Shown piece by piece: positions 7,475 to 34,537 of a stretch of 64,000 nucleotides of DNA. Position numbers and translations under genes: made by a program. The stretch's first letter is position 1, and each line of letters begins with the position of its first letter. The stretch is from Actinoallomurus bryophytorum. GTDB taxonomy: Bacteria > Actinomycetota > Actinomycetes > Streptosporangiales > Streptosporangiaceae. The DNA is taken from the NCBI RefSeq assembly GCF_006716425.1, contig NZ_VFOZ01000001.1, forward strand, positions 3,782,001-3,846,000, in the 5' to 3' direction. Below the pieces are notes generated by a model. It saw nothing but the letters and a program-made list of their open reading frames with translations. It had not been told where the DNA came from and did no database searches.

Positions 7475-7834
7475 GTGCACCGGCAAGCCGTACGGCCTGG
7501 GGTCGTTCGGTTGCGACCCCTGGTGGCTGGTCGGCGCCAAGGCGCTGGTCATCTCCTGCTTGGCCTGTTCGACGAGGAAGAAGGCCTCGCGGCCAGGGCC
7601 CTGGCCGAGCTCGGCGTATCGAAGGACGTGGCCGAGGCCTGGATCGTCGAAGAACTCCGGTTCTACCGGGACGTTCTCGGGCTGAAGCCGCAGTTCGATG
7701 ACGACAGCGGCCCGTACGCCAAGTTCGAGGCTCACCGCCTCGACCGCGTGGGAGATGTCGCCGATCCGCGCGCCTGGGACGGCCGCCCAGATCGCTCCAG
7801 ACGGGCGGGCTCAGACGGGGCGGTCCCAGCCTAA
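7475..7834 (+). pseudogene. chimeric reading frame built from Clp_N regulator and VOC gene fragments
   Basis: An open frame of 119 codons. Bases 7554-7657 match 24578-24681 (the last third of the HTH-Clp_N gene) with about three differences in 104; bases 7656-7731 match the reverse complement of 24949-25024 (the VOC gene) with one difference. The two pieces join at a 2-base overlap TC. Both keep their native reading frame, giving EEGLAARALAELGVSKDVAE through WIVEEL fused to RFYRDVLGLKPQFDDDSG. There is no good start codon or ribosome site, and both outer ends run into unrelated sequence. Most likely a recombination scar rather than a working gene. Confidence 0.7.
7732..7800 (-). pseudogene. 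N-terminal/middle fragment of the same broken methionine aminopeptidase
   Basis: The minus strand encodes AIWAAVPGARIGDISHAVEA, which matches the MetAP segment preceding the catalytic GHGIG block. In an intact gene this would run directly into the part now at 7385. About 346 bases, including the chimera and the hairpin repeat, therefore sit inside the dead map gene. Upstream of it (above 7800) the match is lost. Confidence 0.65.
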
Positions 7835-7921
7835 GGACTTCGGGACAGGCCCTGTTGGGCCGTCGCTGTCGGAGTGACGGCTCTCGGCAGGCCAGGTACG
7901 CGACGTGCCACGATTGATCAC

Positions 7922-19081: not shown

Positions 19082-20551
19082 ATGAGTGACGCACCAGGCG
19101 GAGGTCCGGCGGGCGATACCTACGACGTCGTGGTCATCGGCGTCGGGCCGATCGGCATGAATCTCGCCGACCGGGCCCGCGCCGGAGGGCTCAGCGTCGC
19201 CGTCGTGGAGCGCGAACTCGTCGGTGGTGAATGCGCCTACTGGGCGTGCATCCCCAGCAAGGCGCTCCTGCGGCCGGTCGTCGCGGTCGCCGATGCGCGG
19301 CGGGTCGAGGGCGCGCGGCAGGTGGTCGACGGGGCGCTCGACCCGGCCACCGTCTTCGCGCGCCGGGACGCGTTCGTGCACGACTGGCACGACGACGGGC
19401 AGGCCCGGTGGTTGCGGAGCATCAGTGCCACGCTCGTACGCGGCCACGGACGGCTGGCCGGCCCGCGACGGGTCGCCGTCGGAGACGCGGTACTCACCGC
19501 CCGGCACGCGGTGGCCGTCTGCACCGGCAGCCACACCGCGCTGCCCGATCTGCCCGGTATCGCCGAGGTCCGGCCCTGGACCAACCGCGAGGCCACCGAC
19601 GCTCACGCCGTACCCGCGCGTCTCGCCGTCGTCGGTGGTGGCGCCATCGGCGTGGAGATGGCCGGCGCCTGGCAGGGCCTGGGCGCCGACGTCATCCTGC
19701 TGGCACGCGGCGACGGCCTGCTGCCCCGGATGGAGCCCTTCGCCGGTGAGCTCGTCGCCCGCGGGCTGGCCGACGCCGGAGTGGACGTACGCACCGGTAC
19801 CTCTGTCGTCGGGCTGTGCCGTAAGGGCGGCACCGGGCCGGTCACGCTGCGGCTGGACGACGGGGGCGAGCTGGAGGTCGACGAGGTGCTGTTCGCCACC
19901 GGACGGGCGCCCAACACCGGAGACATCGGCCTCGAGACCGTCGGTCTCACACCCGGATCCTGGCTGGAGGTCGACGAGACCTGCCGCGTACGCGACATCG
20001 ACGACGGCTGGCTGTACGCGGTGGGCGACGTCAACCACCACGCCCTCCTCACGCACCAGGGCAGCTACCAGGCGCGCATCGCCGGCAACGCGATCGGCGC
20101 CCGTGCCGCCGGGCGGCCACTCGACACCGCGCCCTGGGGCGCACACGCCATCACGGCCGACTCCCACGCGGTGCCACAGGTGCTCTTCTGCGACCCGGAG
20201 GTCGCCGCGGTCGGTCTGTCCGCCGAGCAGGCCGAACATGCCGGACACCGCGTACGGGCGGTGGACGTCGACCTCGGCGAGAAGGTCCCCGGCGCCTCCT
20301 TGTACGCCGACGGCTACAAGGGCCAGGCCCGCATGGTGGTCGACACCGACCACGACCACCTGCTCGGCGTCACCTTCGTCGGCCCGGGCGTCGCCGAACT
20401 CCTCCACTCCGCCACCATCGCGGTCGCGGCCCAGGTCCCTATCGACCGGCTCTGGCACGCCGTGCCGTGCTTCCCGACGATCAGCGAGATCTGGCTCCGC
20501 CTGCTGGAGGCGTACCGAGGCTCGGGTGGCCTCCCCGGCCGCGGCGATTAG
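19082..20551 (+). CDS. class I pyridine nucleotide-disulfide oxidoreductase (flavoprotein reductase)
   Basis: 489 residues from ATG 19082, preceded by AGGAGCAGG. FAD motif YDVVVIGVGPIG near residue 15, the redox disulfide in GGECAYWACIPSK (CxxxxC), NAD(P)-binding VVGGGAIGVEMAGA near 190, the second FAD motif LYAVGDVNHH near 320, and a dimerisation domain whose end HAVPCFPTISE supplies the His-Glu pair typical of lipoamide dehydrogenase/mercuric reductase relatives. Lacks lipoamide-dehydrogenase gene neighbours, so the disulfide substrate is unknown. Probably regulated by the upstream TetR protein (context only). Confidence 0.88.
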   Translation: MSDAPGGGPAGDTYDVVVIGVGPIGMNLADRARAGGLSVAVVERELVGGECAYWACIPSKALLRPVVAVADARRVEGARQVVDGALDPATVFARRDAFVHDWHDDGQARWLRSISATLVRGHGRLAGPRRVAVGDAVLTARHAVAVCTGSHTALPDLPGIAEVRPWTNREATDAHAVPARLAVVGGGAIGVEMAGAWQGLGADVILLARGDGLLPRMEPFAGELVARGLADAGVDVRTGTSVVGLCRKGGTGPVTLRLDDGGELEVDEVLFATGRAPNTGDIGLETVGLTPGSWLEVDETCRVRDIDDGWLYAVGDVNHHALLTHQGSYQARIAGNAIGARAAGRPLDTAPWGAHAITADSHAVPQVLFCDPEVAAVGLSAEQAEHAGHRVRAVDVDLGEKVPGASLYADGYKGQARMVVDTDHDHLLGVTFVGPGVAELLHSATIAVAAQVPIDRLWHAVPCFPTISEIWLRLLEAYRGSGGLPGRGD

Positions 20552-20838
20552 GCCCTGTCTCGAAGTCCTCGGTCTGAGGCCCCGCCCGGCCTGAGCCGCG
20601 CCCGGTGGCCCCGCCCGGTCTGGGCCGCGCCCGTGCTGGAGCCCGCCCGTGCTGGAGCCCGCCCGTGCTGGAGCCCGCCCGTGCTGGAGCCCACCCGCCC
20701 GGGGGGTGCCATCCCACTTTCATTGTCCAGCGGGGTCAGTGGCGGGCGGAAGTAGAGCCGAGTTCTGTGGATAACGCCGCCCAGGCGGCACCCCGGCGGC
20801 GCCACACGGCAACCAGCATGACCATGAGACAGACCCAA
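20552..20838. repeat. dispersed intergenic element, copy A (16-bp tandem core)
   Basis: Begins CTGTCTCGAAGTCCTCGGTC, then four copies of the 16-base unit GTGCTGGAGCCCGCCC (20633, 20649, 20665, 20681), then a conserved block at 20701-20776 with GTGCCATCCCACT and TCATTGTCCAGCGGG, and ends ATGAGACAGACCCAAG. It shares order and sequence with copy B at 34027-34537. TGTGGATAA at 20766-20774 is a perfect DnaA-box-like 9-mer. No protein is coded convincingly. Confidence 0.75.
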
Positions 20839-34026: not shown

Positions 34027-34537
34027 GAGCCTGTCTCGGATGTACCACCGTCCCACCGCGCGGCGCCCGCCACAGACGGAGGGACAGGCCTTGGGCCTAC
34101 CTCGAAGTCCCCGGTCTGGGCCGCGCCCGTCGTGGGGTCCGTCCGCGTGGGGCTGATCCGCGTGGGGCTGATCCGCGTGGGGCTGATCCGCGTGGGGCTG
34201 ATCCGCGTGGGGCTGATCCGCGTGGGGCTGATCCGCGTGGGGCTGATCCGCGTGGAGCGCACCCGCGTGGAGCCCACCCGCGTGGAGCCCACCCGCGTGG
34301 AGCCCACCCGCGTGGAGCCCACCCGCGTGGAGCCCACCCGCGTGGAGCCCACCCGCGTGGAGCCCACCCGCGTGGAGCCCACCCGCGTGGAGCCCACCCG
34401 CCCGGGGGTGCCATCCCACTCTCATTGTCCAGCGGGAACAGCGGCGGGCGGAAGTAGAGCGGGGTTCTGTGGATAACCCCGTGGGGCGCCGCTCAGGCGA
34501 CGCCCCACGGCAACAGCATGACTATGAGACAGACATC
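34027..34537. repeat. dispersed intergenic element, copy B (15-bp tandem core)
   Basis: Starts with CTGTCTCGG and CTCGAAGTCCCCGGTCTGGG, then 17 units of 15 bases (34146-34400): seven GTGGGGCTGATCCGC, one variant, nine GTGGAGCCCACCCGC. A conserved block 34404-34478 follows (about 90 percent identical to 20701-20776) with TGTGGATAA at 34468-34476, ending ATGAGACAGACATCAG. Because 15 is a multiple of three, all frames stay open; no start with ribosome site supports a protein. Confidence 0.8.

What the first reader, a model, noticed from the sequence alone, without database searches (positions are those of the whole stretch)
20552..20838. Two dispersed copies of a repeat element with variable tandem cores and DnaA-box-like 9-mers
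Seen: copies at 20552-20838 and 34027-34537 share a 5' block (CTCGAAGTCC..CGGTCTG), a tandem array (4 units of 16 bp versus 17 units of 15 bp), a conserved 75-base block, TGTGGATAA, and an ATGAGACAGAC end. The array length differs, as in a slippage-prone minisatellite. TGTGGATAA is a perfect DnaA-box consensus in reverse. Inference: a non-autonomous intergenic element, or a DnaA-titration or chromosome-organisation site.
Basis: seen in the sequence. Interest (0 to 1): 0.7.

Follow-up and report, generated by a model that had tools for sequence, protein, structure and literature searches.

The report
Mobile repeat carrying a dnaX motif
The two repeats are copies of a small non-coding jumping element present about 60 times in this soil bacterium (an Actinoallomurus), and its conserved core is a DNA motif that relatives also keep, letter for letter, inside the essential replication gene dnaX, so it probably does something that is not yet known.

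Summary
The window's two repeats belong to a family of 60 in their own genome (an Actinoallomurus). Typical copies have 16-bp terminal inverted repeats (GGCCTGTCTCGAAGTC) and CTAG-type flanks; inside are a minisatellite (mostly 15-16 bp units, 2-33 copies), an ~80-bp core and a GC-rich inverted repeat. Relatives have empty sites, including for window copy 2. So this is a non-autonomous, MITE-like transposon, probably moved by an IS5-type, CTAG-targeting transposase.

The core is older than the transposon. It also occurs without inverted repeats, dispersed in another species, and in frame inside dnaX of eight genomes, where fourfold-degenerate sites are 94% identical between genera, against 57% in neighbouring dnaX code. 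Its blocks keep a fixed 52-54 bp geometry. That points to a nucleotide-level function.

All five full-length copies of one IS110 element sit exactly at the array/core junction. RNA folding gave no support. What the core does, and what moves the copies without inverted repeats, is unknown.

The parts
20548..20551 (.). left flank TTAG (target-site side), overlapping the TAG stop codon of the upstream oxidoreductase gene
20552..20567 (+). copy 1 left terminal inverted repeat GCCCTGTCTCGAAGTC
20581..20697 (+). copy 1 minisatellite (about four clean 16-bp units plus degenerate ones)
20688..20778 (+). copy 1 core, sequence-model match 71 bits, E 3.6e-20
20766..20774 (+). TGTGGATAA (reverse complement TTATCCACA), DnaA-box-like
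20776..20813 (+). copy 1 GC-rich inverted-repeat region between core and right TIR
   Evidence: read from sequence
20820..20835 (+). copy 1 right terminal inverted repeat GACCATGAGACAGACC; flank CAAG follows
   Evidence: similar mini-elements with the same TIR elsewhere in the genome
34094..34109 (+). copy 2 left terminal inverted repeat GGCCTACCTCGAAGTC
34143..34401 (+). copy 2 minisatellite, 17.3 x 15 bp, 97% matches
34391..34480 (+). copy 2 core, sequence-model match 74.1 bits, E 3.8e-21
34468..34476 (+). TGTGGATAA, DnaA-box-like
34479..34512 (+). copy 2 GC-rich inverted repeat CCGTGGGGCG..CGCCCCACGG
   Evidence: read from sequence
34520..34535 (+). copy 2 right terminal inverted repeat GACTATGAGACAGACA; flank TCAG follows
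7775..7851 (-). truncated relative: left TIR GGCCTGTCCCGAAGTC plus array-like sequence, no core

Best explanation
The two repeats are copies of a non-autonomous transposon (MITE-like, here 'type 2') of an Actinoallomurus. SHOWN: inverted-repeat ends, CTAG-type flanks, empty sites in relatives, 60 copies, no coding potential, a preferred position at the 3' ends of genes (the CTAG target overlaps TAG stop codons). INFERRED: an IS5-type transposase with CTAG target duplication moves it in trans; three such IS families live in this genome and one has similar ends. The transposon carries an older module ('type 1'), a minisatellite plus core, that exists without the inverted repeats elsewhere. SHOWN: type 1 is inserted at loci that are empty in sister species, and one copy sits in dnaX of eight genomes under nucleotide-level constraint. 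INFERRED: the array grows and shrinks by slippage, helped by G-rich (G-quadruplex-type) units that always abut the core. INFERRED, weakly: the core is a DNA site for a host protein with recognition blocks at fixed spacing, one of them a DnaA-type box; inside dnaX it may affect dnaX or replication, and dispersed copies would act as extra binding sites. The same array/core junction serves one IS110 element as its insertion target.
For: 60 copies, both anchors agree. TIRs and flanks across the genome; TSD of the CTAR type seen directly for one copy: own GACTAA|element|CTAGGCC against GACTAGGCC in relative G006. Empty sites for window copy 2 in G003, G004 and G006. Convergent-gene context in 35 of 60. 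Three IS5-like families with CTAG target duplications. Core blocks invariant irrespective of codon phase while the spacer varies; same geometry, 52-54 bp, in 33 cores without TIRs. dnaX: fourfold-site identity 137/145 in core against 235/412 in domain III between genera. Orthologous type-1 copy next to a probable DAHP-synthase gene in G000 and G004: blocks 50/57 identical, spacers 10/28. Type-1 loci of G003 empty in sister species. G-quadruplex-type motif on the strand opposite the core in 54 of 60 copies against 5.5% of random windows. Five of five full-length IS110 copies, 1338 bp each, at one site.
Against: No intact IS with exactly the element's TIR was found, so the mobilising enzyme is not identified. 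Many flanks are degenerate (copy 1 has TTAG/CAAG) and several copies have no recognisable second TIR. No empty site was found for copy 1. For type 2 alone, core conservation could reflect recent spread; only the dnaX and type-1 data argue against that. No binding or expression data exist. The TTATCCACA form is not the high-affinity box reported for Streptomyces and Mycobacterium (TTGTCCACA, PMC4285127).
Confidence: 0.72

Rival explanations
1. DnaA-binding or DnaA-titration sites: each core is a DnaA recruitment site (perfect TTATCCACA plus an inverted partial box TTGTCCAgc about 44 bp away), and the 60 copies buffer free DnaA or organise the chromosome.
For: TGTGGATAAC invariant in all 60. Variants in type-1 cores, TGTGGA[T/C/A/G][A/G]A, match DnaA-box degeneracy. 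Two diverged cores keep TGTGGATAAC while the other blocks decay. Five of ten TTATCCACA in 400 kb around oriC lie in cores and a sixth beside one. One conserved copy is in a replication gene.
Against: Only one perfect box per copy, whereas known titration loci are clusters. Copies are uniformly spread on C1 (KS p = 0.95), with no enrichment near the origin. The actinobacterial optimum TTGTCCACA is the minority form (4 of 34). The array and blocks A and B are unexplained. No binding data.
Confidence: 0.3
2. The core is a structured non-coding RNA (regulatory RNA, or an end or guide RNA of a mobile element) with two hairpins, GGGG/CCCC and TTGTCCA/TGGATAA.
For: RNAalifold finds exactly these two helices in 34 sequences. 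Most C-block changes keep the pairing through G-U. Conserved ends with unconserved flanks are typical of an RNA at an element end.
Against: No pair has a compensatory change. Single sequences fold no better than shuffles, z = 0.04 to 1.4. A diverged core lost block B while keeping TGTGGATAAC. No Rfam match to the core. Spacer length is fixed to 1-2 nt although it would be a loop.
Confidence: 0.18
3. The core began as a programmed -1 frameshift signal of dnaX (G GGG GGC heptamer plus downstream stimulator, with a -1 stop near TGTGGATAA giving a short gamma subunit) that was copied into mobile elements.
For: Heptamer in the correct phase in 8 of 8 dnaX genes, 10 nt before the CCCACT block; -1 frame open to TAA or TGA at the box in 7 of 8. 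dnaX recoding is known in other bacteria (PMC3711429). dnaX is the one locus shared across genera.
Against: In the window's own species the -1 frame stops earlier. Intergenic cores of 52 and 54 bp spacing cannot keep the frame, yet their blocks are conserved. Several dispersed cores lack the -1 stop. The GGGGGGC run is not kept in them.
Confidence: 0.12
4. Selfish hitch-hiking only: the core has no host role; its constancy reflects what a transposition machinery needs plus recent amplification.
For: Elements clearly move and multiplied in two lineages. No function has been demonstrated. No core at all in 400 kb of each of two congeners, G006 and G007.
Against: Single-copy dnaX core constrained at synonymous sites across genera. 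Blocks maintained in a resident orthologous copy while its spacers diverged. The same blocks are kept by elements with and without TIRs.
Confidence: 0.2

Closest known systems
BrickBuilt, a MITE with an internal minisatellite in Porphyromonas gingivalis (PMC4596501)
   Same: Non-autonomous, intergenic, leader and tail with small inverted-repeat ends around a tandem array (23-bp units), about 20 copies per genome
   Different: Unrelated bacterium; here units are mostly 15-16 bp, there are about 60 copies with CTAG-type flanks, and the core predates the inverted repeats, has a fixed block geometry and a conserved counterpart inside dnaX
IS621 / IS110 elements that insert site-specifically into REP repeats (PMC1525189, PMC11208160)
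   Same: An IS110 (PF01548 + PF02371) uses a dispersed repeat as its target: 5 of 5 full-length copies at one site; its 5' non-coding region holds an 8-nt match to its own left donor end (shuffle frequency 0.004) and a 7-nt match to the left target (0.18, not significant alone)
   Different: The target is a minisatellite/core junction of a MITE, not a REP palindrome; bridge-RNA function is only predicted here
MITEs moved by IS5-family transposases
   Same: Inverted-repeat ends and a CTAG/CTAR target like the IS5-like elements of the same genome
   Different: No IS with exactly the same TIR was found; carries an independent, older conserved module
DnaA-box loci outside oriC (datA, DARS)
   Same: Perfect TTATCCACA box in each copy
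   Different: One perfect box per copy, many dispersed mobile copies, no binding evidence

Membership tests
MITE (non-autonomous TIR element) | short terminal inverted repeats | tested here: met
   GGCCTGTCTCGAAGTC / GACTTTGAGACAGGCC, both ends found within 4 mismatches in a majority of copies
MITE (non-autonomous TIR element) | target-site duplication | tested here: met
   CTAG or CTAR on both sides in many copies; single CTAG in the relative's empty site for one copy. Degenerate in others, including copy 1
MITE (non-autonomous TIR element) | no transposase, dispersed, insertion polymorphism | tested here: met
   60 dispersed copies, empty sites in relatives
MITE (non-autonomous TIR element) | cognate autonomous element with the same TIR | tested here: inconclusive
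   Fifteen PF01609 places examined; one family has ends RGCSTGTCCTCAAAGC, similar but not identical
BrickBuilt-like minisatellite MITE | tandem array between leader and tail | tested here: met
   Array next to the core in 54 of 60 copies
BrickBuilt-like minisatellite MITE | sequence homology to BrickBuilt | not tested
   The BrickBuilt sequence was not compared; the base composition is very different
REP-type target repeat of IS110 elements | IS110 copies at one fixed position of the repeat | tested here: met
   Five of five full-length copies at GCCCGCC^C[G/A]GGGGG
REP-type target repeat of IS110 elements | repeat is a short extragenic palindrome | tested here: not met
   Element of about 160-720 bp with array, core and TIRs
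Bridge-RNA IS110 element (the insert) | non-coding end with guides matching target and donor | tested here: inconclusive
   Left-donor match 8 nt (0.004 of shuffles), left target 7 nt (0.18), right guides not significant; sum of the four 0.017
DnaA-box locus | perfect or consensus-degenerate boxes | tested here: met
   TTATCCACA in 60 of 60; variants follow T[T/C]NTCCACA
DnaA-box locus | cluster of several boxes | tested here: not met
   One perfect box per copy plus a partial inverted one
DnaA-box locus | binding by DnaA | not testable with these tools
   needs a gel shift or ChIP
Known structured RNA family | Rfam match or compensatory base changes | tested here: not met
   No Rfam match in the core, 0 compensatory pairs, folding z = 0.04 to 1.4

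The most novel reading that the evidence does not exclude
A nucleotide-level regulatory site of unknown type, fixed inside the coding sequence of dnaX in a clade of actinomycetes, has become a mobile module. It spread alone with a self-expanding minisatellite in one lineage, was captured by a TIR transposon and multiplied to 60 copies in another, and serves an IS110 element as its programmed home, so that a replication-linked DNA signal is being scattered over the chromosome.
Probability: 0.35. Interest if true: 0.85.

Novelty: new variant of a known kind. Interest (0 to 1): 0.6.

Why it matters
Minisatellite-bearing MITEs and IS110 homing to repeats are known separately. Here they meet on a core that is also under synonymous-site constraint inside dnaX across genera, which suggests an overlooked functional site in an essential replication gene. 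It makes a concrete question testable: which protein or RNA uses this ~80-bp motif, and do 60 extra copies change replication control? Each of 60 loci also offers a natural series of tandem-array lengths on one constant core, useful for studying minisatellite instability in bacteria.

Tried and rejected
Coding explanation: reverse-strand (GGWAP)n and forward (LEPTR)n reading frames exist in 15-bp arrays but break in 16-17 bp arrays, all codon positions of the core blocks are equally invariant, and spacing varies by 1-2 bases: rejected. Core as an end of IS110: five copies looked like IS110 plus core, but the IS110 is a clean 1338-bp insertion into pre-existing repeats: rejected. IS110 as mobiliser: it sits inside only five copies and the TIRs are unrelated to it: rejected. 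Structured RNA: no support. Plasmid or phage origin of the core: no match in viral contigs; the Arthrobacter dnaX match lies on the antisense strand of that gene with E 0.02 and is taken as chance, and phage matches are short. Polar replication-fork trap: copies are 29 forward and 31 reverse with no visible polarity and uniform position. G006 match at C22: covers only the right part of the core, kept aside. Genes next to type-1 copies show no obvious transposase by eye and no orientation bias; their families were not searched. Literature: no paper on this element was found in the searches made, in an open-access library only.

Full report
1. Observation. Both copies are present as described. 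The family is much larger than two. A 28-base piece of the core with up to 3 mismatches occurs 60 times in the window's genome (9.47 Mb, three contigs), with 0 matches for the reversed control. An independent anchor on the other half of the core gives the same 60 plus four more places, one of them dnaX. The genus is Actinoallomurus: the dnaX locus of a same-genus genome (L122) is identical to a record named Actinoallomurus sp. RYN_226 (L135) where the two were compared.

2. Anatomy of the 60 copies ('type 2'). Left inverted repeat GGCCTGTCTCGAAGTC, tandem array, core, GC-rich inverted repeat, right inverted repeat GACTTTGAGACAGGCC. Where both ends are recognised, elements without IS110 are about 160-720 bp long; the 951-bp span called for L087 rests on a doubtful left end. 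Tandem Repeats Finder finds an array touching the core in 54 of 60, with period 15 in 29 and 16 in 14, and 1.9 to 33 copies. The strand opposite the core carries a G-quadruplex-type motif (loops up to 12) in 54 of 60 copies, against 5.5% of random 310-bp windows; with loops up to 7 it is 13 of 60 against 2.1%. This makes slippage plausible but does not show it.

3. It is a mobile insertion. Flanks are CTAG, CTAA, TTAG and similar on both sides in many copies. Relatives carry the flanking genes without the element for four copies, including window copy 2 in three genomes. For the copy in L070, relative G006 reads GACTAGGCC where the window's genome reads GACTAA, element, CTAGGCC, i.e. a CTAR duplication. 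For copy 1 only the left flank was found in a relative, so no empty site is shown. Thirty-five of 60 copies lie between convergent genes, often 0-1 bp from a stop codon (crude gene calling); the simplest reason is that the rare CTAG target overlaps TAG stop codons. Three IS5-like families in the genome also insert at CTAG with CTAG duplications; one has ends RGCSTGTCCTCAAAGC, resembling the element's ends. None has exactly the same ends, so the mobiliser is inferred. Many smaller elements with the same ends exist, from about 45-bp palindromes to a ~170-bp family; one abuts window copy 2 at 34028-34090.

4. IS110 at the junction. Five copies contain an IS110-family element (PF01548 and PF02371), always 1338 bp and always between GCCCGCC and C[G/A]GGGGG at the array/core junction. 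These are all the full-length copies in the genome. This fits the programmed target choice of IS110 elements (PMC11208160, PMC11187229) and the older finding that such elements home to REP repeats (PMC1525189). In its 5' non-coding region an 8-base match to its own left donor end is rarer than in 99.6% of shuffles; the target-side matches are not significant alone, and the sum of all four matches is reached in 1.7% of shuffles. A bridge RNA is therefore likely but not shown.

5. The core is older than the transposon ('type 1'). A tolerant pattern finds 20 places in congener G003, three in G004 and one each in G002, G006 and three genomes reached through Actinomadura alba, Actinomadura sp. HBU206391 and a Streptosporangiaceae MAG; the single copies lie in dnaX. 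The other G003 copies lack the inverted repeats; most sit next to their own, different tandem array. All 33 type-1 cores share the blocks CCCGCCC.GGGG, CCCACT, ATTGTCCAG and TGTGGATAAC, with CCCACT to TGTGGATAAC always 52-54 bp. Type-1 loci of G003 that could be compared are empty in sister species, so type 1 also arrives by insertion, by an unknown mechanism. One copy beside a probable DAHP-synthase gene (named from its sequence, not searched) is shared by G000 and G004: its blocks are 50/57 identical and its spacers 10/28.

6. Constraint on the core. Across the 60 type-2 copies the blocks are invariant at all three codon phases while a 16-base spacer varies. In dnaX, between Actinoallomurus and the Actinomadura side, fourfold-degenerate positions are identical in 137 of 145 comparisons in the core but in 235 of 412 in the adjacent conserved domain III (pairs are not independent). 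A sequence model of the core finds two further diverged cores in 400 kb around oriC, both with TGTGGATAAC intact, and one more elsewhere. It finds none in 400 kb of each of two congeners and none in the dnaX loci of the congeners or other genera tested that lack the motif.

7. Function. Coding is excluded by spacing and phase. RNA: the consensus fold gives two helices but no compensatory change, and folding energies equal shuffles. DNA site: fixed geometry favours a protein contact. The TGTGGATAAC block varies as DnaA boxes do; the own oriC between dnaA and dnaN has degenerate boxes of this kind; five of ten TTATCCACA in the 400 kb lie in cores and a sixth beside one. Against DnaA: one perfect box per copy, uniform positions, and TTGTCCACA is the high-affinity form in Streptomyces and Mycobacterium (PMC4285127). 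In dnaX a G GGG GGC heptamer with a -1 stop downstream hints at a frameshift signal, but the own species breaks the -1 frame. I rate a DNA site for a host protein as most likely, with DnaA the first candidate.

8. Comparison. The closest known kind is BrickBuilt, a minisatellite within a MITE (PMC4596501). The combination with a dnaX-conserved core and an IS110 home site was not found in the literature searched, which is open-access only.

Noticed in passing
34028-34090: A separate ~63-bp mini-element with the same type of ends abuts copy 2; similar mini-elements (about 45-180 bp) with the same inverted repeats are scattered in the genome.
   Followed up: partly
7775-7851: Truncated relative on the minus strand: left inverted repeat and array-like sequence without core.
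   Followed up: no
L254 / L194 (own dnaX, C1:3202050): The core lies in frame in the dnaX linker with a conserved G GGG GGC heptamer and a -1 frame stop near TGTGGATAA in 7 of 8 species, a possible frameshift signal.
   Followed up: partly
L079, L103, L106, L108, L118: 1338-bp IS110 element with one fixed target; two copies (L103, L108) carry a variant C-terminus and share a different right flank CAGGGGGAACC.
   Followed up: partly
L169-L175, L179-L183: Three IS5-like families, all at CTAG with CTAG duplications; several are inserted directly beside the repeats.
   Followed up: partly
L266 and other G003 loci: Another Actinoallomurus genome has about 19 dispersed cores without inverted repeats, most with their own tandem array; what moves them is unknown.
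   Followed up: partly
L298:4590-4768 (C1:3408.6k): A core followed about 90 bp downstream by a second TGTGGATAACC and a repeated segment, perhaps a partial duplication of the right half.
   Followed up: no
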